Of a stretch of 64,000 nucleotides of DNA, positions 20,009-49,531 are shown piece after piece. Numbering within the stretch: the first letter of the stretch is position 1; the number at the start of each line of letters is the position of its first letter. Origin of the DNA: Hamiltosporidium tvaerminnensis. Its lineage: Eukaryota; Microsporidia; Dubosqiidae. The position numbers were made by a program, and so were the translations under genes. The stretch is from contig CM061249.1 of the NCBI GenBank assembly GCA_022605425.2, forward strand, positions 124,001 through 188,000. The letters run 5' to 3'. Under the pieces are notes generated by a model, which was given only the letters and a program-made list of their open reading frames with translations, was not told where the DNA came from and did no database searches.

Positions 20009-20103
20009 GTAATCCTGACAATAAAAAGAAATTAAATAGTCGTTGCTTTATAAAGATAGTAAAAAAGATGTAAAAAGTAGTATTTATTGTACTATCTACT
20101 CTA

Positions 20104-21699
20104 ATAATTCCTTTTATTCCTTTTGATCTTCACTGTCATGTAAAAGACGATTACAACAGGGATTAAAAACAGAGTGGAAAAGATGATACGTCTCAAAGCG
20201 CAATTTTCGCAAATCTTGAAAAAATATTTCGCTATTTTGATCTTCTCTTGGTATAATTTTTCTAAATTGTGTTTCCAGTGAAATATATTGTTCTTTTTCC
20301 AACTCTGCCTTCTCTTCTGTATTAAAAAACGGTAGAGCACTATCAGAAAATATATCAAATAGTATTTTATAACTTGTATAACAATTTCTTTTTCATTAGT
20401 ATCTTTTCTAATTCACAACTATTTATCAGTGACAGCAGGGGGGTTGCAGTTGCGAGGCAATCCTTAGACATTGTTTCAGTAGAATTGTAAGTATTTGTTA
20501 TTTTTTTAATTTCGTTTGTATCAAACGAAAATACAAGATCCGTTATAAAATTAGTATCAGAAATTTCAGGCGAATTGAATTTACTGTCAATTGAACCAAA
20601 TCCCCAGTTTCGGATTCCAATGTTTAGGATATTTAAAATCTTAAGAAAATCATCTTCCATATTTAATCCGAAACTACAAACCACAATGATTATTTCAACA
20701 ATTAAATTTAAATTATTATCCAAAACATTGTTTATTCGGTCTTTTAAACTGAAAGTGTGGTCTATACGCATCGATTTTATCTCATCGTTACGCAGTCTCA
20801 TATCAGTCAATAAAAGAATACTTTCGATACTTTTAATTGCTAAAAAAACGGAAATATAACATTTTTTTGAAACATCTATCGACTTCAGTCTTTCCAAAAC
20901 AACCTTTTCAGAGAAATAAAAAATGTAGCTTTGCCTATAATTCCACATGTTGGGGAAAACATACTTTTTATACCCCCGAGTTCTCTCTCAAATATCTCCT
21001 GGTTCGAATCACTAAAACCGGGCTGGGTTTCCATTGATTTTTGTTCGATACAACAAATATTTTTGATAAATTTTTTATAATTTATTTCTGTATTATTCTT
21101 AAAAAATTTGGCAAGAAAATAATGATTATTTAAAAAATTTTCAATTCTTGGTAAATCAGATTGTGAAACATCTTTATAAGAAACGACTGAATCAAAAATT
21201 TTTTGAAGTTATTGATGAGTTGAACTTGGTTTACTGACTACATCTTCACTAAACTGTATCGGAGGTAGTGACGATTCTTTAGGCCTTGCATCTGACTTTT
21301 TAGACCCAAGAGACTTAAAATATTCTCTAATTTCACCAAATGCCCCCAAACAGCTTTTTGACCAAGGAGAATTATTCGTATTAGATTTATTTGAATTTTC
21401 TGCAGCCTCAACAAGTGAATAATTTGCACTACTAAGACATCCGCTTTGGTCCTGTTCAGATATATTCCTGCTCTTATTTTGAATGTCTAGACGTTGTGAT
21501 ACTCTACGGCTGCTTTCATAATCAGTATTACCAACTTTTGCGACAGTTCTTTTATATAAATGTGAATGTACTTGTCTCTATCTCTATACGCTCTTTCTAA
21601 TTTATTAGAATTCTTATTGAGCTGCGTGCCTTGAGAACCAAATATAGACGACCAAAAAACAAGAAAAATCATTTTTTTGTTCGAAAGAAGAAACAACAT
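20104..21699 (-). pseudogene. Frameshifted third member of the window's secreted protein family
   Basis: The minus strand reads like the genes at 39.7 and 47.9 kb but is broken. A signal-peptide-like start lies at 21699-21640. A Ser/Asn-rich middle continues in another frame, with one TAA near 21210. Then DLPRIENFLNNHYF (about 21150) matches the paralogues' LPAIEIFLDNNYLL. The block 20948-20367 includes LAIKSIESILLLT and NFITDLVFSFD, matching MAMKSIESILILT and EFITDLIFQFD. After two more shifts, LRKLRFETYHLFHSV (near 20200) matches LHELRLDTYYFFHFV. At least three frameshifts and one stop are needed, so it is a pseudogene unless the assembly is wrong. Because most of the sequence is still alignable, decay is recent. 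Confidence 0.75.
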
Positions 21700-23839: not shown

Positions 23840-26236
23840 AATTGATCGTATCTGCAACTTTTACACCAAGATAATTACGAGCCTTCATAAAAATCTTTAC
23901 GATATTGTAAAATTCATATGTTTAGAATGAACGACATAAGCCGACTAGTATTGTTGTGGACTTACTTATCAGAATCCTGACGGTATACCAAATACTGGTT
24001 CTGATTACAGGCTAATAAAATGTATGCAAACATATACAAACTGACAAAAAAATGTGTTACACAAGTGGTACAGCTTGAGGTGTAAAGAAGAGGGTTACTT
24101 TCAGATAATCAGTTAGGAACATTGGGCGAAAGGAAAATCTTATTGATTGTTACCATTAATATAGAGTACGAAAACAATTTTAAGAAAATGTAAATTGATG
24201 CAAAAAAGCTTATGATCCAATAGATCATGCTTATTTGAGTCAATGAATCGAAAAACTTAATCTACCTGATTAGATCCTAAATTTATTTGGTAAATATATC
24301 AAAATAGAAAATTTATATACCAGTAGGGCCTGTAAAGATCATTAGCAAGAAGATGAATTTGCAAAGAGATCGTTTATCATCATTGTTGTTTATATTGTTT
24401 GGATTCATTCAGCCGAAAGCTTAAGAGAAATACATAAGGGAACCAAAAAAACAGATGCAGAATCCCACGCGACATATCATCTCTTGTTTATTGATGATCT
24501 TAATCTCCTTGTCGAAGATGAACAAACACTGGAAGAAATGACGAGGAGGTTAAGAAGTTTATGAATAATATAAGATTGGAAATAAACAAAGAGAAGTCAG
24601 CCAATAATGATCCATGTTGTGAAAATACTGCTACTCTTCTTGAAGAAATAGGGATTTATAAATACCTTGGAATAATATAAAATAGCAGAGGAATTCCAAC
24701 AAGTAAGTCGTTTGAGGAAGTACAGAGAAAACTGATAGCACGATTAGAAAGACTTTGATGCACGAGATTAAATGATAGAATTTTTTTCAAGCATTAATCA
24801 ACATGCGATTTATTTACTAAACCGTAATATAGGTGTATCCGACTAGAACCGGCTGACATATAAGTTAGATGATGCGGTGCGTGCAGTGTTAGTAAAGAAC
24901 AAAATACATCTACTCCCAGGATGTAAAGAACGTCTATAATTTCACCATAAAAACTTGGAAGAGGTTTACAGAGTGTCGAGTTCAAAAACGACCATATGTT
25001 TTTGCAACTCTTAAATTGTTTGGAAAAACATAAAGATACATCGACCAGAAGAGCAGCAATCCTAAGGGATGGGAATAATAATAAAACCCACCTTTCACTT
25101 ATTAAAAACTTTTAAAAAATAAAATACGGGTTGGAGGAGGAAGTCACAAAAAAGAAATTGGAAGAAGCTCAACATGCCAACCTATATAACGAAATCAAAA
25201 ACCGAAAACTACATTCAAAGTTATTTAGCGATATAAATAACGAGCTTGTAAGTGTTAGTGGCTCTTCAAGATGGCTAAAGAAAGGGAATATTAAGCCGCG
25301 TGATGAAGCAGTTTTCTGCTATATTTAGGATAGAAATGTATTCTGGGGTGCAGAAGGTATGTCTCAACACTGCAAACAGTCTAAGAAAACGGTAGAACAT
25401 TTAGCAACGAGATGTTAAAAAATGCTTGGTCATGACTATACTAGACGACATAATGAAGTGGTACGATGTATACATTTACTCTTGCTAAATAAATATAAGT
25501 CTAAGTCTTCGAAACGAATTAGAAGCCACTCAGTTCAAGAAATTCTTAATAAAAAATTTGCAGAGATAAGAGTGGACACCAGAATAAAAACCAATGTCAA
25601 GATTCGGTGTAACAGACAGAATATATTTATTTTAGACAAGATACAGAATAAGATAACCCTCATTGAAGTAGGAATCACATCCCAAGACTCTCTTCAAATA
25701 GTTGAAACAGAGAAGCTTAGGAAGTATGACCTATTAGCAAATGAGTTAGGTCTTATTTATAAATGCAGTGTAGAGATAATTCCTTATGTGATGACCTGGG
25801 ACGGTATTGTGACAAAATACCATAAGACGTATGTTAAGAGACTGCAAATACCCATGAATGTAGAGGCATATATACAATCTATAGTACTCAAGAAGACAGT
25901 CGAAACAATTTCTTTTGATCGACGAAGAGGACTTGAGTTTGGACCAAATGCCGAAGAGAGCAGATAGAGCATTATTAAGTGTTATTTTAGGAGCTGAGAT
26001 GCATAAACAACCAACACCCCTTTAAAGCAAGTAGACAACGAGGAAGATGATGTTAAAACTGAAAATAAAAAAAATATTTTACCCCCTATTTTGCATGGCA
26101 TAGCCACAGCAGAGGAATTGAAGAAAAATATTAACGAAGGCTTGGAGTTGGAGGAAGAAATATAAGTGGTTGAAATGGTGGGAAGAATTATTTAGAAAAG
26201 ATAAAAATTTGTTAACCCAGAATTTTATTAAATAAA
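23840..26236 (+). mobile_element. Degenerate R4/Dong-like LINE: reverse transcriptase, zinc knuckle, restriction-like endonuclease and 3' end
   Basis: Broken plus-strand frames give the order of a non-LTR retrotransposon with a C-terminal restriction-like endonuclease. Near 24200 lies the KKAYDPIDHAYLSQ polymerase motif. At 24485-24510 LLFIDDLNLLVEDEQTLEEM holds the catalytic Asp pair, and YKYLGI lies near 24665. A CCHC knuckle lies at about 25360-25415 (first Cys mutated to Ser, then C-x7-EHLATRC). An open C-terminal frame of 181 codons (25422-25967) contains ITLIEVGITSQD. In the endonuclease motif the usual PD is QN here, so this copy is inactive even apart from its stops. It ends with GAATTTTATTAAATAA at 26220-26235. 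The clade is inferred from wording. Confidence 0.85.
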
Positions 26237-31894: not shown

Positions 31895-33784
31895 ATGAAT
31901 CTTGAATGGAAGAATGTAGATATAGAATTAGTAAATAAAAATAAAAATAGACGTGAAAAGTATGTTCGTTTAATAACCAACGCGAATGGTATTGTAAAAG
32001 CTGGTTCACTTTGTGCAATCATGGGACCGAGTGGAAGTGGTAAAACGACATTAATCAAAGGATTGGTAGGAAGAATACCATCTGGTGCGAAAACAAAAGG
32101 TGATATACTAGTTAATGGTAAGGCAAGAGACTACGAAAATTGGTGTAAGAATATTGGGTATGTAGATCAAGACGATTGCATTTATGAGAAATTAACTGTT
32201 TTAGAGACCGTAACATATGCAGCAAGATTTAGACTAAAAGAGCAAAATATCAACATATTGAAAAAAGTCGAAGATCTTTTAGATGAATTAGATATTCTAG
32301 ATATTTCTGGTTCAAGAATGGATAGTATTTCCGGTGGTGAGAGAAAACGTGTTATGATAGCGATTGAACTTATTACAGAACCAAATATTTTGTTTATGGA
32401 TGAACCAACAAGTGGATTAGATTCTTCAACGGCATTCAATTTTGTCAAACTGATGCAAACATTATCGATAACACACAAGATGACGGTAATTTTTACTATT
32501 CACCAGCCATCTGTAGAAACATTTTCTATATTCGATCAGCTAATTTTGCTTTCCGATTCTCATACAGTATTTTCGGGTCAAGCAGAAAATGCGGAAGAAT
32601 ATTTTGAATCTTATGGACTTAAAAAACGCGAATTATCAACATTTCCTGATTTTCTTGCAGAGGTGCTAAAAGTCAAGCACAAATATCGGGAATTGCCTGA
32701 ACATCAAGCCATATTAACCAAAATGATAAATGATGTGGAAATAAAGTATCACGTACCTGAAAACATGGCTATTTCTGATCAAAATGAAATAGCAATGAGT
32801 TATATTCCAAACAAGAGGCATATAATGATTCTTCTAAATCGAAAATATAAAACCAATTTTTCAATTTCGAAAGTTTTATTTTCGCTTGTAATAATTGGTC
32901 TTTCTTTTTACAGTTTCATTCTAACTGCCTTTGGCCTTCTCGAGAAGGAAAATTCGCCTAAAATCATAACTACATATTTTATTATTAATCAGGCTGTTCA
33001 CGATGAAACATTTTTTAAATTTGCAAATTTTGTACAAATATATGGGGATAAAGTTTCTGCTGTATTGAAACCAAGCATATTTATGCAGTTCTTAGGTATA
33101 CTTTTTGCTTACTCGATGATCGCTTCGACTGGTGTTTTTTCCTTTGAATATAAAATGGTAAAGAGAGAACTTGGTGTTGCGACATATTCTATCGGTTCAT
33201 ATTATTTTGCAACATTTTTATTCGAAATATTTTTTTATCTGCCATTCTTTATTCTGATCAATATTATTTCAGCGATTTTACAAGGAAGTTTAATACCTTG
33301 GGAATTTTATTTGTTTGTTATTTTTGGTTTGTTGGCTTTTATTCCAGTAATTTTATTTTTCGGATCTTTAACGAAAAGAACAAAAACGATTTATGTGATT
33401 GTAAGTTTTTTAGCATTAACTTGGGCAGTTCCACCTGTTTTTTACGTCAGATCCCGCCGTTTTTTTACAGACCAAAATTGCTATCCTAACATATTTTTTA
33501 TGTTAATTGGTTCAATTTTTCCACCGCTGCATTTTAAAGCTCTTTGTGTTGCATTGTCATACAAATTTTCAAGCCAAAGTTCAGATATTTTGAAAGAAAA
33601 CGATAGCATAAGATCAACATGTGATCAACTTTCAGCCAATTTATATTCTTATTTGTATAACTCGATGGCTATTTGGCAAATATTACTTCTTTTTGTTATT
33701 ACAACAGTTTTCTATGTCGTTTTTGCATTAGTTGCTTTGACGCTGCGATTAAAGCCTGAACAAAGATTCAAGTTATCTAAATAG
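31895..33784 (+). CDS. ABCG-type half-size ABC transporter with intact ATPase motifs
   Basis: A 629-residue protein in the ABCG (White/PDR half-transporter) order: ATPase domain first, then about six membrane spans. Walker A is GPSGSGKT (44-51), the Q-loop is Gln92, the signature is ISGGERKR (145-152), Walker B is ILFMDEPTSGLDS (165-177) with catalytic Glu170, and the H-loop is His203 in IHQPS. All are canonical. Membrane segments lie at about residues 325-350, 395-420, 430-465, 470-500, 505-525 and near 600. ABCG half-transporters work as dimers and move lipids or xenobiotics; the substrate is unknown. A diverged paralogue starts at 43341. It could pair with this protein, or this one may form homodimers. 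The ATG start is supported by CCC triplets. Confidence 0.93.
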   Translation: MNLEWKNVDIELVNKNKNRREKYVRLITNANGIVKAGSLCAIMGPSGSGKTTLIKGLVGRIPSGAKTKGDILVNGKARDYENWCKNIGYVDQDDCIYEKLTVLETVTYAARFRLKEQNINILKKVEDLLDELDILDISGSRMDSISGGERKRVMIAIELITEPNILFMDEPTSGLDSSTAFNFVKLMQTLSITHKMTVIFTIHQPSVETFSIFDQLILLSDSHTVFSGQAENAEEYFESYGLKKRELSTFPDFLAEVLKVKHKYRELPEHQAILTKMINDVEIKYHVPENMAISDQNEIAMSYIPNKRHIMILLNRKYKTNFSISKVLFSLVIIGLSFYSFILTAFGLLEKENSPKIITTYFIINQAVHDETFFKFANFVQIYGDKVSAVLKPSIFMQFLGILFAYSMIASTGVFSFEYKMVKRELGVATYSIGSYYFATFLFEIFFYLPFFILINIISAILQGSLIPWEFYLFVIFGLLAFIPVILFFGSLTKRTKTIYVIVSFLALTWAVPPVFYVRSRRFFTDQNCYPNIFFMLIGSIFPPLHFKALCVALSYKFSSQSSDILKENDSIRSTCDQLSANLYSYLYNSMAIWQILLLFVITTVFYVVFALVALTLRLKPEQRFKLSK

Positions 33785-39667: not shown

Positions 39668-41269
39668 TTATTGTTTTATTTGTCTTGAATATGGTTCTCT
39701 CAAAGCCTTTAAATATTTTTCAGAACTTTCACTGTGATTGTGGCAATAATTTAGGACAAAATGAAAAAAATAATATGTATCCAATCGAAGTTCATGTAAA
39801 TCTTGTTCAACATTAGGACAATTTTCTGAAATAAGGGCCTTGAATCTCGTTATTAATGAATGATATTGTTCTCTCACAAATCTATGAGCAATATTTGTAT
39901 CCAAAAATTTTGATTTGGCGTCTTGGAATATACTAAAATAATATCTTATTATTTTTATCACAAAATATTTTTCTGACATAAGTTTTTCAAGTGCTAGAAA
40001 ATTTTCTGGGTTACACATATTCATATTTGTAAATTGATTGCTGGTTGTGTTCGATGGATTGAATAAACTGGCGATTTTTGTAATTTCCTCTGAATCAAAC
40101 TGAAATATAAGATCTGTTATGAACTCTATAGAAAAACTTCTCGTTGAATTAAATCTTGTAACGAATGAATTTCTACTGCGTAGATTAATCCCAATTTTCG
40201 TAATATTTAGTACCAGGAAAAAATTTTCGTTTAAATAAAATCCTAGATTAAAAATTTCAACAATAATTTCCATCATTATATTGGAATTATTCCGTAAAAT
40301 ACTATTTATATTTGTAAAAATTGAGTTTATTGTGTCTGCACCACGCCTTTCAAGAGCAATTTCTTTTTCTCTTTTAGTTAAAATTAGAATACTTTCTATA
40401 CTTTTCATTGCCATGAACATAAAAATGCCACATCTTTTTTTTAAAGGCATCGACTGTAATTTATCTTTAACGAAGTTTTTCAAAAATATAAGAAATGTAT
40501 TTCTGAGAAGCATTTCATTGCTCTTTGCAAATATATCTATGTTATTTAGTTCATTTACGAAAACTTCCCAAGTATTTCTACTAAAATTAAACCTGTTTTC
40601 ATTCAATCTATTTTCGATAATGAAAATATTTCTGATAAATTTTAGATAACTTTTTTTACTATTGATTTTAAATAGCTCATACAAAAGATAATTGTTATCT
40701 AAAAATATTTCGATTGCTGGTAAATTAGAATCTGAATCGCTCGTAAATAACAAAACTGCTTCAAAAGTTTTCTTAAGTTTTTTGTAACTTGATTGTGGAG
40801 TCATCGGTACATTTTCATTTTGTTGTAAATAGAAAAATGAATCAATAGTTGGATATACCTGTGAAGGTATAGGAGTAACTGGTAAATAAGGATTTTGAAT
40901 TTCGTTCTGAATCAATGTACTCCCGTGTGCGAATAAATAAGAATAATTATCAGATCCATATAAATCTACTGGATTTTGAACTATTAAATTGTGCGAAAAT
41001 ATCAATGACGGCTGTGGATATGATTGTGAGATATTGTAATGTTCATGTGAAATATAATAATATGAGCACGAGTTTTGCATTTGGCAGAAATAACAACCAC
41101 ATACCTGCAGAGTGATGTAACTATGATGCTGGTTTTGCAATGGGTGTTCTTGATCGAAACGTCTTAGTACATTTGTCGGATTAATGTTCGTTTGCAAGAT
41201 TCCCGGTCCAAAAATATACGAAAATATAACATGAATTAATATTTTACTGTACCATTTAGGATAAAACAT
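39668..41269 (-). CDS. Secreted protein of an unrecognised family (member S1)
   Basis: A 533-residue protein of unknown function. It has a hydrophobic N-terminus (residues about 9-24), probably a signal peptide. A region rich in Tyr, Gln, Pro, Asn and Ser follows to about residue 160. The helical domain (about 165-533) has conserved blocks shared with the gene at 47.9 kb: FLDNNYLLYELF (189-200), MAMKSIESILILT (286-298), FVTRFNSTRSFSIEFITDLI (369-388) and a C-terminal LHELRLDTYYFFHFVLNYCH (491-510). The Cys and two His in NYCHNH are kept in both intact members. A CCC triplet sits two bases before the ATG (41272-41274). Export and a role at the host interface are plausible but unproven. Confidence 0.85.
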   Translation of the reverse strand: MFYPKWYSKILIHVIFSYIFGPGILQTNINPTNVLRRFDQEHPLQNQHHSYITLQVCGCYFCQMQNSCSYYYISHEHYNISQSYPQPSLIFSHNLIVQNPVDLYGSDNYSYLFAHGSTLIQNEIQNPYLPVTPIPSQVYPTIDSFFYLQQNENVPMTPQSSYKKLKKTFEAVLLFTSDSDSNLPAIEIFLDNNYLLYELFKINSKKSYLKFIRNIFIIENRLNENRFNFSRNTWEVFVNELNNIDIFAKSNEMLLRNTFLIFLKNFVKDKLQSMPLKKRCGIFMFMAMKSIESILILTKREKEIALERRGADTINSIFTNINSILRNNSNIMMEIIVEIFNLGFYLNENFFLVLNITKIGINLRSRNSFVTRFNSTRSFSIEFITDLIFQFDSEEITKIASLFNPSNTTSNQFTNMNMCNPENFLALEKLMSEKYFVIKIIRYYFSIFQDAKSKFLDTNIAHRFVREQYHSLITRFKALISENCPNVEQDLHELRLDTYYFFHFVLNYCHNHSESSEKYLKALREPYSRQIKQ

Positions 41270-43340: not shown

Positions 43341-45239
43341 ATGGATCTCGAATGGAAGAATGTAGATATAGAACTTATAAATAAAAATAAAAGCAGTTGT
43401 GATGAGTATGTACGTTGTATAACAAATGCAAATGGATTTTTAAAATCTGGTTCCATATGTGCCATTATAGGACCAATTGGAAGCGGTAAAACGACGTTAA
43501 TCAAAGCATTAGTAGGTATAATACCATCTGGTTCAAGAACAAATGGTGAAATATTTGTCAATGGTATGACGAGATATTATTACAATTGGCTTAGCTGCAT
43601 CGGTTATGTAGATGAAAATGATTATATTTATGAAAATTTGACAGTTTTGGAATTCTTAAGATATTCAGCATCGCTTAGACTAAAATATCAAGATGCTGAT
43701 TTATACGAAATAGATTCGATATCGGAAGATATTTTGAAGAAGCTGGGTATTTCGGATATATCAGATTCAAAGATTCATATTCTTTCACCTATTCAAAAAA
43801 GACTAATACTAATCGCCAATGAACTTGTTACTATACCAAGAATCTTATTTATTGATGATATACTAAAAGAAATGGATGATAATACAGCCTCTAATCTTTT
43901 TAATTATATGAAATATTTGTCGATTTATCATAATGTCACAGTTATCTTTACAATCGATCGGCCTACAAGCAAAATATTTGCTTTATCGAGCCATATAACC
44001 CTGCTTTCTGATTCCCATACTGTATATTTTGGAAAAACAAAAAAAGCAGAAAAATATTTCGAATATTACGGACTAAAAAAACCCGAATCAGCAACATTTC
44101 CTGAGTTTATTTCCGAAATTTTAGAGACAAAGAATAAATACTCTGAGATTAAGGCACATCAAAACAGTTTGAACAAAATTATAAATAATGTAAAAACCAA
44201 TCCAGTACCCGAAAAAATGTTGTTTAGCAATGAAAACGGTACTAAAATTTGTAAATCATTATCCTTATGGGATATTTCAATAATTGCAAATCGACAATGC
44301 AAAATGTATGTTACTTACAAAAAAACTTTTGTGTTTCTATTCTTGTTTGGGTTTATCTATTTAATTTTATTCAAATATATTTTTATATTTATGAATAAGG
44401 ACTATTTTGGTGATAAATTAATCAATATTTACAGTTTGGTTAAGAATTATGTTACTGATCAATCTGTTCATCGGTTTATAGATCTTATAAAAATTCATAG
44501 TTCTCAAATTTCAAAGATAATACAAAACAGTGTAGTTTTACAACCCATGGGTATATTGTTTGCTTTCCTATTGATTCCTTCTTCTAATATCTTTTATTTT
44601 GAACACCAAATGGTAAAGAAAGAGTCGGTAATGGCAACATATTCCATAGGCTCTTATTATATAGCAACATTTTTTTCTGAATTATTTTTCTATTTCCCAT
44701 ATTGTTTCGCCATTCAAATATTATCAGGTTTATTCTTCTCAAAAAAGTTAGGATGGGGATTTCATATCTTCCTCATTTTTGGTTTATATGCTTATCTTCC
44801 GGTTTTCCTATTTTTCGGATCTTTTATAAAAAGAACTGGAATACGTTATCTTATTATAAGTTTCCTCGCTTTATTTTGGATAACACCGCCTTTTATGTAC
44901 TCAATTTTACGAAATTTATATACTAAGAAACAAAATTTACTCGGATTGGTTTTTTTAGTTATCAGTGCACTTTTTCCACCGCTTCACTATAATGCTTTTT
45001 GTGTTGCGCTAGCATATAAAACAGATAGCTATAAATCAAGATTTTTGGAGAAAAATCCTAGTGTTAAAGAATTATCTGATCGTTTCGCAGAGTATTTATA
45101 TTCATATTTGTTTGATTCAATGAATATCTGGTATATAGTTCTGTTTTTTTTCATAACAAGCACTATTTATATATATTTTACAATATATGCGCTTAAAAAG
45201 CTATTGACACCCGAACATAGATTTAAACTATCGAAATAA
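43341..45239 (+). CDS. ABCG-type transporter paralogue with degenerate ATPase motifs
   Basis: This 632-residue protein aligns end to end with the transporter at 31.9 kb, from MDLEWKNVDIELINKNK to the shared C-terminus PEHRFKLSK. Walker A is intact (GPIGSGKT, 44-51), but the other nucleotide-binding motifs are not. The Q-loop Gln is Glu92. The signature SGGER is SPIQK (149-153). Walker B ends in Asp173 instead of the catalytic Glu, the D-loop SGLD is KEMD, and the H-loop His is Asp206. The frame and membrane segments are fully preserved, so selection still maintains it. It is likely a poor or dead ATPase acting as a partner subunit, or a protein with a new role. The start is the ATG at 43341, because the earlier in-frame TTG at 43335 is unlikely. 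No CCC triplet precedes it. Confidence 0.9.
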   Translation: MDLEWKNVDIELINKNKSSCDEYVRCITNANGFLKSGSICAIIGPIGSGKTTLIKALVGIIPSGSRTNGEIFVNGMTRYYYNWLSCIGYVDENDYIYENLTVLEFLRYSASLRLKYQDADLYEIDSISEDILKKLGISDISDSKIHILSPIQKRLILIANELVTIPRILFIDDILKEMDDNTASNLFNYMKYLSIYHNVTVIFTIDRPTSKIFALSSHITLLSDSHTVYFGKTKKAEKYFEYYGLKKPESATFPEFISEILETKNKYSEIKAHQNSLNKIINNVKTNPVPEKMLFSNENGTKICKSLSLWDISIIANRQCKMYVTYKKTFVFLFLFGFIYLILFKYIFIFMNKDYFGDKLINIYSLVKNYVTDQSVHRFIDLIKIHSSQISKIIQNSVVLQPMGILFAFLLIPSSNIFYFEHQMVKKESVMATYSIGSYYIATFFSELFFYFPYCFAIQILSGLFFSKKLGWGFHIFLIFGLYAYLPVFLFFGSFIKRTGIRYLIISFLALFWITPPFMYSILRNLYTKKQNLLGLVFLVISALFPPLHYNAFCVALAYKTDSYKSRFLEKNPSVKELSDRFAEYLYSYLFDSMNIWYIVLFFFITSTIYIYFTIYALKKLLTPEHRFKLSK

Positions 45240-47890: not shown

Positions 47891-49531
47891 TTATTGCACG
47901 TAATTCTTAAATGATTTTTTTAACTTCTCAAGGTAATCTTTAGAGCAACTCTTATGATTATGACAATAATTCATCACAAAGTGAAAAAAATAAAAGGTTT
48001 CATAGCACAGCTCATGTAAATCACGGCGAATATCTATTCCATTTAGCGCTAATAGATTCAAATATTCATATTTTTTTTTCAAAATGAAGTAGTTAGGAAT
48101 TATAATTTCGTTTTCAATATTAGTATTTAAAAATTTTAACTGAATATCCTGGAATATCATATGATAATATTTTATTGAATTCATCAATAATTGTTGTGAA
48201 TAAAATGTATTTTCTACGTTATAAATAAGTTTTTTTTTATCGGTTGGCTGTTTTGTATGATTCGGAATATTTTTTAAGTCTTTATTACAGTTATTGGCGA
48301 TTTCTGATATGTCGATGTAATTAAAGTAAAAAATGAGATCTGTTATAATATCTAAGGTATAATAATTGGATTTACTTCTTGTAACAAATGATCTCTTATA
48401 TCGTTCATTATGTCCTATTTTCATTATACATAGTACAAAGAGAAAATCTTGATTCAAATTTAATCCTAAAGAAAAGATTTGCTCAATTATATTGAAGATT
48501 AAATCGGAATTTTTCTTGATTTTTGTTCTTTTAGCATGAAAATACTCTTTTGCGTTTGTGATTTTTAAATGTCTAGGAAATAGACGAGCTAATTCATCAT
48601 TAGTCAACTTAAGAATACTTTCTATGCATTTCATTCCAATAAACATTGTAATACAATTTCTTTTTGATTGATTGACTGATATCAAGTTATAATAAATAAA
48701 ATTTTTCAAATAAATTAAACTTGTAAAATTGGATAAAATTTCGGCTCCTTGTAAAAATAAATTGATGTTCGGAAAAACAAGCTCAAAAATATTCCAATTT
48801 GTTTTACTATAATTAAAATTTCCTATATTTAGCACGTTCTCGATCCAGCTAATATTTTTTAAAAATGTTGAATAGTTTTTCTTTATAAACTTGACTTGGT
48901 CTATTTTTGGATTATTTTCGAAAAAATCATGAAAAAAATAATCGTTGGACAAAAAGTTTCTAATTTCTGGTAAGAATGAATGAATTTTGGTGGTATCTAA
49001 ATTTAAAACTGCTTTAAAAAGCTTTTTTCGTTCGTCAAAACTCAGAAGGGGTATAGTTATTTTATTGCTATTATAACTTAAAACTGTATCGAAATTATTG
49101 TTAGCTCTTATTGGCGATTCTGTATAGTTATCAGGAAAAAATAGCTTTGGTGGCAAATTTTGTTGGTCTGCTGGGATTCCATATACCATACAATGACTGC
49201 TCGGTACCAAAAAATACACACTTGTAGGATGTATACCGTTTTGATATGGTTGAAATGAGAATAAAAACGGCGCTGTATTTGGAATTGGGTATTGATATTG
49301 ATATTGATGTGATTGATAAAGTGGATTGATATTATTGGTAGCTTGATAAGTGTAACATTCTGCCATAGGATCTAAATAACCATCTATTATCTGATGAGTT
49401 TCTTCCCCGGTTGTATTGTTCCCTGTCATGTATAATGGATATAGACCTTCTTGGTAGACTACTGCTCCAAATATGTACGAATATAAAAGATGAAAAAATA
49501 TATGTGTACTCAAAGAAGGAAAGTAAAACAT
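47891..49531 (-). CDS. Secreted protein of an unrecognised family (member S2)
   Basis: This 546-residue paralogue of the gene at 39.7 kb has the same layout. A signal-peptide-like start begins MFYFPSLSTHIFFHLLYSYI. A low-complexity region rich in Tyr, Gln, Asn and Pro follows to about 160. The helical domain has LPEIRNFLSNDYFFHDFF (187-204), GMKCIESILKLT (299-310), VTRSKSNYYTLDIITDLIF and a C-terminal LHELCYETFYFFHFVMNYCH. Blocks outside these are well diverged, which suggests either age or fast evolution, as is common for exported proteins. A CCC triplet lies two bases before the ATG (49534-49536). It follows the degenerate ABC gene exactly as S1 follows the intact one. The function is unknown. 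Confidence 0.85.
   Translation of the reverse strand: MFYFPSLSTHIFFHLLYSYIFGAVVYQEGLYPLYMTGNNTTGEETHQIIDGYLDPMAECYTYQATNNINPLYQSHQYQYQYPIPNTAPFLFSFQPYQNGIHPTSVYFLVPSSHCMVYGIPADQQNLPPKLFFPDNYTESPIRANNNFDTVLSYNSNKITIPLLSFDERKKLFKAVLNLDTTKIHSFLPEIRNFLSNDYFFHDFFENNPKIDQVKFIKKNYSTFLKNISWIENVLNIGNFNYSKTNWNIFELVFPNINLFLQGAEILSNFTSLIYLKNFIYYNLISVNQSKRNCITMFIGMKCIESILKLTNDELARLFPRHLKITNAKEYFHAKRTKIKKNSDLIFNIIEQIFSLGLNLNQDFLFVLCIMKIGHNERYKRSFVTRSKSNYYTLDIITDLIFYFNYIDISEIANNCNKDLKNIPNHTKQPTDKKKLIYNVENTFYSQQLLMNSIKYYHMIFQDIQLKFLNTNIENEIIIPNYFILKKKYEYLNLLALNGIDIRRDLHELCYETFYFFHFVMNYCHNHKSCSKDYLEKLKKSFKNYVQ

What the first reader, a model, noticed from the sequence alone, without database searches (positions are those of the whole stretch)
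43341..45239. Full-length ABCG paralogue whose ATPase motifs are almost all degenerate
Walker A is kept, but five sites change together relative to the paralogue at 31.9 kb: Q-loop Gln to Glu92, signature SGGER to SPIQK, catalytic Glu to Asp173, D-loop SGLD to KEMD, and H-loop His to Asp206. The 632-codon frame and the membrane part stay intact, so this is not simple decay. Possible readings are an obligate heterodimer in which the paralogue supplies the working ATP site, or a nucleotide-binding sensor or receptor with no pumping. Degenerate sites are known in heterodimeric ABC exporters; loss of this many motifs in an ABCG half-transporter is unusual.
Basis: partly seen in the sequence, partly recalled or inferred. 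Interest (0 to 1): 0.75.

Follow-up and report, generated by a model that had tools for sequence, protein, structure and literature searches.

The report
ABC half-transporter with a dead motor
A parasite of water fleas carries a full-length membrane pump protein whose ATP-burning motor has lost its key residues, yet the gene has stayed intact for a long time, which suggests a job other than pumping.

Summary
The 632-codon ORF at 43341-45239 (X) is an ABCG-type half-transporter that keeps Walker A but has changed Q-loop, signature, catalytic Glu, D-loop and H-loop. The assembly matches the microsporidian Hamiltosporidium tvaerminnensis. X is the tandem sister of the canonical ABCG at 31.9 kb (Y).

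A different database record, 97% identical, is changed at the same motif positions, so error is unlikely. X is not ordinary decay: no stops, omega 0.26 on its branch (omega=1 rejected for whole gene and ATPase domain, not for the membrane domain alone), while broken copies of the family carry stops. Extra change concentrates in the ATPase domain, and hydrolysis motifs are hit preferentially (11 of 14 against 23 of 88).

'Partner supplies the working site' fails: X lost both its Walker half and its signature half, so no dimer containing X has a complete site. Known asymmetric ABC proteins split these losses between two domains.

Best reading: a selected, non-hydrolysing half-transporter that modulates a canonical paralogue. 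Relaxed constraint (present divergence is high) and a non-pumping homodimer are serious rivals. A second, unrelated half-transporter in this genome shows the same condition. Expression was not tested.

The parts
43341..45239 (+). X: ABCG-type half-transporter, 632 aa, intact frame, degenerate ATPase motifs
   Evidence: Pfam ABC_tran 59.5 bits; AF2 model matches ABCG25/ABCG2/ABCG5-G8 over the whole length
43341..44150 (+). X nucleotide-binding domain, residues 1-270 (boundary chosen here)
   Evidence: strongly accelerated relative to Y (71:17, 67:13, 51:17)
43470..43496 (+). Walker A GPIGSGKTT, residues 44-52, kept (S46I only)
43614..43616 (+). Q-loop Gln to Glu92
43785..43799 (+). Signature SGGER to SPIQK, residues 149-153
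43845..43877 (+). Walker B end and D-loop, residues 169-179: LFIDDILKEMD where Y has LFMDEPTSGLD (E173D; D172 and D179 kept)
43956..43958 (+). H-loop His to Asp206
44295..45236 (+). X membrane domain, residues 319-632: identity to Y in the range of canonical pairs, mild acceleration
31895..33784 (+). Y: canonical tandem paralogue, 629 aa, all motifs intact; sister of X
   Evidence: tree support 95/94
39668..41269 (-). U1: neighbour of an unknown family interleaved with the ABCG copies
47891..49531 (-). U2: same unknown family, 34% identical to U1
20102..21298 (-). U0: broken copy of the U family (stops inside), three matched pieces
   Evidence: C4:144102-145298

Best explanation
X arose as a tandem duplicate of the Y lineage and became a pseudo-ATPase ABCG half-transporter. 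Shown: an intact reading frame, purifying selection averaged over the branch for the whole gene and for the ATPase domain, preferential loss of the hydrolysis motifs, a kept Walker A, stronger acceleration in the ATPase domain than in the membrane domain, and motif losses that predate the split from the second known allele. Inferred: the protein is made, still binds nucleotide through Walker A without turning it over, and pairs with a canonical paralogue (Y is the nearest by sequence and position). Such a dimer would have no complete catalytic site, so X would act as a non-pumping, modulatory subunit (a brake or a nucleotide-gated facilitator) and not as half of an active pump.
For: Zero stops against about 44 expected if roughly 450 nonsynonymous changes (my rough figure from dN) had accrued neutrally. 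Branch omega: NBD 0.20 against background 0.034; whole gene 0.26 against 0.055; omega=1 rejected for both (2dlnL 9.24 and 10.85) and stable over three topologies; 0 of 150 neutral simulations reach either value; Y tested as tip gives 0.017 in the NBD. Relative rate: NBD 71:17, 67:13, 51:17 X- to Y-unique with three outgroups; TMD 44:30, 51:28, 26:22; NBD/TMD contrast p = 0.005, 0.007, 0.028. Motif targeting 11/14 against 23/88. P0002 changed at the same 11 positions. Broken family copies carry stops: L008 13 over 665 aligned columns at 53% identity to L007, L014 12 in its two main pieces, L012 at least 8, L009 at least 3. Composite-site rule from PMC7756269 passages. ABCG fold.
Against: X differs from P0002 at 17 of 632 residues, while three canonical paralogues differ from their database counterparts at 7 of 1891 (p = 2.8e-6), so constraint is weak now; the isolate pairs are not matched. 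In the TMD alone omega=1 is not rejected (2dlnL 2.6-3.0) and the TMD is mildly accelerated (29:13, p = 0.02). In the stretch 415-444 of the membrane domain X matches L003 and L004 at only 14 and 12 of 30, against 20 and 21 for Y. dS exceeds 1 on most branches. X lacks the CCC motif upstream of its ATG that 16 of 25 sampled ORFs have. A recent, nearly broken copy (L005/L006) shows only 1-2 stops, so a young decay could look almost intact. No evidence of expression, nucleotide binding or dimerisation; the modulatory role is not shown by any result here.
Confidence: 0.42

Rival explanations
1. Gene on the way out: X was useful for most of its history but is now under strongly relaxed constraint and will become a pseudogene, as several members of this family already have.
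For: 17 of 632 differences to P0002 against 7 of 1891 in the paralogues; the family has several broken copies; no CCC start motif; a recent neutral phase would give only about 1.7 stops among 17 changes, so zero is unremarkable (P about 0.19).
Against: Whole-branch omega 0.26 with omega=1 rejected. Hydrolysis motifs are hit preferentially while Walker A is kept. The frame is intact in two different alleles. The present rate excess (about 7-fold per site) is not far from the long-term omega excess (0.26/0.055, about 4.7-fold), so no recent change of regime is required.
Confidence: 0.27
2. X forms homodimers that do not pump: a nucleotide-gated or ungated channel, facilitator, scramblase or receptor that uses the ABCG membrane domain.
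For: Membrane-domain identity X-Y (41%) lies at the upper end of canonical pairs (36-41%); Walker A kept; D-loop mutants of TAP and of ABCB9 are reported as nucleotide-gated facilitators (PMC7756269, passages).
Against: D-loop Asp179, the residue type named for TAP, is kept in X; ABCG5/G8 tolerates those D-loop changes (passage). No functional data.
Confidence: 0.19
3. Classical asymmetric heterodimer: X is the degenerate half and a canonical paralogue supplies one working ATP site.
For: Such heterodimers are well known among ABC exporters (PMC7756269, passages); a canonical tandem sister exists 9.6 kb away.
Against: The partner's Walker site would need X's signature, which is SPIQK, and X's own Walker half lacks Glu and His. 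In Pdr5 and CDR1 the bad Walker half lies in NBD1 and the bad signature (LNVEQ) in NBD2, so one site survives (alignments; passage).
Confidence: 0.07
4. Assembly or sequencing error, or a wrongly called frame.
For: None found.
Against: Start and stop coincide with the paralogues, the changes are many and dispersed with a continuous frame, and a database record that differs at 17 residues (so not the same sequence) is changed at the same motif positions.
Confidence: 0.01

Closest known systems
Y (window 31895-33784) and the Hamiltosporidium ABCG family
   Same: Same length, domain order and ends; 46% identity; sister in the tree
   Different: Y keeps every ATPase motif; X has changed five
Pdr5/CDR1 (PDR, full-length ABCG) degenerate NBS1
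   Same: Several motifs lost at once in ABCG-type proteins; NBD2 signature LNVEQ aligns with LSPIQ of X
   Different: Losses are split between NBD1 (Walker half) and NBD2 (signature), leaving one complete site; in X all sit in one NBD
ABCG5/ABCG8 heterodimer
   Same: ABCG half-transporters with one degenerate site
   Different: Pattern there is signature plus Walker A Lys to Arg (PMC7756269, passage); X keeps Walker A and loses Walker B Glu, H-loop and signature in the same chain
TAP1/TAP2 and other type I exporters with a degenerate NBS
   Same: Walker B Glu to Asp, often with an H-loop change (PMC7756269, passages)
   Different: Signature change lies in the other NBD, so the second site works (partly recalled)
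ABCC8/ABCC9 (SUR) regulators
   Same: ABC proteins with a regulatory, non-pumping role (PMC7756269, passage): a working analogy only
   Different: Other subfamily, full-length; no comparison was run here
L043/L045 (P0183), ABCB-type half-transporter in the same genome
   Same: Intact 571-aa frame with signature, Walker B Glu and H-loop lost in one chain
   Different: Different subfamily; Walker A lost as well

Membership tests
ABCG half-transporter (fold and domain order) | N-terminal NBD followed by a helical membrane domain in one chain of about 600-700 aa | tested here: met
   the ten best Foldseek hits are ABCG25, ABCG2 and ABCG5 chains over 635-668 columns, rmsd 5.9-9.9 A, so the superposition is loose
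ABCG half-transporter (fold and domain order) | Pfam ABC_tran over the curated cut-off | tested here: met
   59.5 bits, cut-off 25
ABCG half-transporter (fold and domain order) | Pfam model of the ABCG membrane part (ABC2_membrane_7) | tested here: not met
   Found in Y (35.4 bits), not in X at E 0.001; the match in Y covers residues 203-302 only, so this says little about the membrane helices
Active ABC ATPase | Walker A | tested here: met
   8 of 9 residues kept
Active ABC ATPase | Catalytic Glu, H-loop His, Q-loop Gln | tested here: not met
   D173, D206, E92
Active ABC ATPase | LSGG signature | tested here: not met
   LSPIQK
Asymmetric heterodimer with one working site | Degenerate chain keeps the half that the partner's site needs (signature) | tested here: not met
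   X has lost signature and Walker half; contrast CDR1/Pdr5
Asymmetric heterodimer with one working site | Physical pairing with a canonical half-transporter | not testable with these tools
   No interaction or multimer tool; Y is the nearest candidate by sequence and position
Pseudogene | Stops or frameshifts | tested here: not met
   none in X or P0002; present in L005/L006, L008, L009, L012, L014
Pseudogene | dN/dS near 1 | tested here: not met
   0.26 whole gene, 0.20 NBD, omega=1 rejected; the TMD alone is inconclusive (0.26-0.28, 2dlnL 2.6-3.0); not tested between orthologues
Expressed gene | Transcript | not tested
   Iso-Seq data exist for this assembly (PMC10542269, passages) but were not available here

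The most novel reading that the evidence does not exclude
X is a dedicated non-pumping ABCG subunit with both halves of the ATP site removed in one chain ('cis-degenerate'), which rewires a parasite transporter by forming dimers that bind but cannot hydrolyse ATP. Hamiltosporidium has done this twice, in ABCG (X) and in an ABCB-type protein (L045), so that pseudo-ATPase half-transporters would form a recurring class in microsporidia.
Probability: 0.22. Interest if true: 0.72.

Novelty: new variant of a known kind. Interest (0 to 1): 0.5.

Why it matters
Degenerate ATP sites in ABC transporters are usually explained by division of labour between two complementary sites. A half-transporter that has lost both halves of the site in one chain cannot fit that scheme, so it gives a natural test of what an ABC membrane domain can do without hydrolysis. 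If it is expressed, it would also mean that parasite transporter repertoires counted by gene number contain non-pumps. That two half-transporters of different subfamilies in one genome show it makes the question testable beyond one gene.

Tried and rejected
Heterodimer with one working site: rejected as stated because X has lost both halves. Sequencing error: rejected by P0002. Plain pseudogene: rejected for the whole branch, not excluded for the most recent period. Missing CCC motif as proof of silence: not decisive, since 9 of 25 sampled ORFs (X among them) lack it, also canonical L004 and L027, and 405 of 1996 E. cuniculi genes lack a CCC or GGG motif (PMC2803860, passages). Link with the U family: X and Y are interleaved with U1, U2 and broken U0; the 14 matches lie on C3, C4, C13 and C16 (L004 is also on C16), none on C6 or C2 where L003 and L007 lie, so no functional link is claimed. 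Homologue searches with X and with A1 gave no close relatives outside Hamiltosporidium (about 8000 candidates scored in each, 120 of 522 hits listed in the second); the tool needs shared 5-residue words, so absence is weak evidence. Paper searches (listings and abstract starts of the papers listed, held library only) showed no report of a half-transporter with both halves of the site lost in one chain. The single-sequence model of Y was poor (pLDDT 39) and was not used. A measure without L007 gave similar fractions of changed invariant sites in NBD (45/146) and TMD (28/80); it has no matched control, so I replaced it by the paired counts, which show strong NBD (53:8) and mild TMD (29:13) acceleration.

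Full report
What is there. The ORF at 43341-45239 (+) encodes 632 aa without internal stops. Pfam finds ABC_tran at 59.5 bits; its neighbour at 31895-33784 (Y) has ABC_tran at 95.8 bits and ABC2_membrane_7 at 35.4. The window lies in a genome of 21,638,905 bases in 17 contigs, which matches the assembly of Hamiltosporidium tvaerminnensis (isolate from Daphnia magna FI-OER-3-3; 21.64 Mb, 17 contigs; PMC10542269, passages). The six best database hits are Hamiltosporidium proteins. The organism is thus identified by assembly statistics and protein names, not by a record label.

Motifs. Against the canonical rows of alignment A1 X has Q92E, SGGER to SPIQK (149-153), E173D, SGLD to KEMD (176-179, last Asp kept) and H206D; Walker A keeps 8 of 9 residues. 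Of 102 NBD columns invariant in the nine canonical rows (some of these rows are alleles of one gene), X changes 34; in the hydrolysis motifs 11 of 14, elsewhere 23 of 88 (Fisher p = 2.6e-4). P0002, a 97% identical record named H. tvaerminnensis (cluster of 6 sequences), is changed at all 11 motif positions and departs from the canonical residue at 33 of the 34 changed positions, position 262 being the exception. The loss therefore predates the split of these two alleles.

Census. A search of the genome with PF00005 gave 18 places, a lower bound by the tool's own note. They fall into 14 distinct ORFs of at least 250 aa: two hits each belong to L037/L038 and L039/L040, two places (L042, L044) have no such ORF, and L035/L036 are two genes that differ at 2 residues (L036 was checked by pattern as L011). 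Two of the 14 are truncated copies (L030, L033). By eye on these alignments, 2 of 14 lack signature, catalytic Glu and H-loop His in the same NBD: X and L043/L045. The latter is a 571-aa half-transporter whose database copy is 100% identical, in a cluster of 4, and carries PF00664, the ABC-B/C type membrane domain by my recall. Its only other match in this genome is a canonical gene on the same contig, at 24% identity.

History. In a tree of 12 proteins X is sister to Y (95/94) with end branches 1.08 and 0.24. Relative-rate counts, X-unique to Y-unique: NBD 71:17, 67:13, 51:17; TMD 44:30, 51:28, 26:22, with L003, L004 and L007 as outgroups; of the TMD counts only that with L004 is nominally significant (p = 0.01). 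NBD identity is 54% for X-Y against 68-75% among Y, L003 and L004; TMD identity is 41% for X-Y against 36-41% among them, but 32% and 34% for X with L003 and L004. The NBD/TMD contrast is significant (p = 0.005, 0.007, 0.028). On sites shared by L003 and L004 the X-only to Y-only counts are 53:8 in the NBD and 29:13 in the TMD (p = 0.02), so the TMD is mildly accelerated too. In the stretch 415-444, X matches Y at 19 of 30 but L003 and L004 at only 14 and 12, against 20 and 21 for Y.

Selection. A codon model written here (one omega per branch class, no site variation) gives omega on the X branch of 0.20 in the NBD (background 0.034; 2dlnL 14.29 against equal, 9.24 against 1), 0.26 in the TMD (background 0.048; 3.3-3.4 against equal, 2.96 against 1) and 0.26 overall (background 0.055; 15.77 and 10.85). 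Two other topologies give the same picture; there the TMD values are 4.3 against equal (nominally significant relaxation) and 2.6 against 1. So in the TMD alone neither strong constraint nor neutrality is shown. Of 150 simulations each, none under omega=1 and none under the background omega reach the observed values, for NBD or whole gene (0 of 60 each for the NBD). dS is above 1 on most branches, so absolute values are rough. Stops make up about 10% relative to nonsynonymous weight in X; for roughly 450 nonsynonymous changes that means about 44 stops under neutrality, and none is seen. Broken copies of the family do carry stops: L008 13 over 665 aligned columns at 53% identity to L007, L014 12 in its two main pieces, L012 at least 8, L009 at least 3. 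The recent L005/L006 copy, 96-99.5% identical to an H. magnivora protein, shows only 1-2 in the compared pieces plus a frame break.

Result against. X and P0002 differ at 17 of 632 residues, while Y, L003 and L004 differ from their database counterparts at 1, 3 and 3 (7 of 1891; p = 2.8e-6). The counterparts carry different species names and are not matched isolates. The excess, about 7-fold, is not far from the 4.7-fold omega excess on the long branch (0.26/0.055), so it fits steady relaxed constraint; a recent neutral phase is not excluded, since 17 changes would bring only about 1.7 stops. X also lacks a CCC within 15 bases of its ATG; 16 of 25 sampled ORFs have one and 9 (X included) do not, among them canonical L004.

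Structure. A model from a 16-row alignment has mean pLDDT 78 and pTM 0.76. Its 50 best matches listed are ABCG25, ABCG2, ABCG5/G8, ABCG1, ABCG16, Pdr5 and Cdr1 (TMq 0.55-0.71, rmsd 5.9-13.9 A). The NBD of X can thus still be modelled as an ABC fold; stretches under pLDDT 50 are 62-64, 265-267, the linker 284-303 and the last eight residues.

Mechanism. [quoted passage not shown] With X in a dimer, the site on X lacks Glu and His, and the site on the partner faces SPIQK. No partner can complete either. In CDR1 and Pdr5 the bad Walker half is in NBD1, which has a canonical SGGER signature, and the bad signature LNVEQ is in NBD2, which has a canonical Walker half (alignments; passage), so one site remains. 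X differs in kind: the losses are in one NBD. Hence the most likely role is without hydrolysis: ATP binding through the kept Walker A, and either modulation of a canonical paralogue or a homodimeric facilitator or receptor. Pairing, binding, expression and role are inferences.

Context. X and Y alternate with an unknown protein family on the other strand (U0 broken, U1, U2). Microsporidia carry several ABC-G genes (for example 5-6 in the four Encephalitozoon species of its table; PMC8206274, passages). Paper searches (listings and abstract starts only) showed no earlier report of such a half-transporter.

Verdict. It is an unusual, probably selected, pseudo-ATPase variant of a known family, with relaxed constraint as the serious rival. 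Interest 0.5.

Noticed in passing
L045 / L043:349-2064 (own genome C1:803621-805333): ABCB-type half-transporter, 571 aa, intact frame, with Walker A, signature, Walker B Glu and H-loop all lost; database copy P0184 is 100% identical. A canonical relative (24%) lies on the same contig at 842 kb.
   Followed up: partly
window 20102-21298, 39668-41269, 47891-49531 (minus strand): Unknown protein family with N-terminal hydrophobic stretch (by eye), interleaved with the two ABCG genes; 14 matches in the genome (some are pieces of one copy), 6 of them on contig C16 (612-738 kb); no Pfam hit for U1 and U2.
   Followed up: partly
own genome C12:830-832 kb, C12:1224 kb, C8:11.8-13.3 kb, C14:114 kb, C17:504 kb: Broken or truncated members of the same ABCG family, pointing to birth and death of copies; the C12:830 kb copy is 96-99.5% identical over two pieces to an H. 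magnivora protein of 419 aa.
   Followed up: partly
own genome C4:617308-618081 and C4:669081-669854 (L010, L011): Two canonical ABCG-type half-transporter genes 52 kb apart, 588 aa each, that differ at 2 residues, suggesting a recent segmental duplication.
   Followed up: partly
window ORF starts and fetched loci: CCC within 15 bases upstream of the ATG in 16 of 25 ORFs of at least 250 aa against 70 of 1977 ATGs of the window (both strands).
   Followed up: yes
window 25422-25967 (+): 181-aa ORF that looks by eye like a fragment of a reverse-transcriptase-type element; no search was run on it.
   Followed up: no
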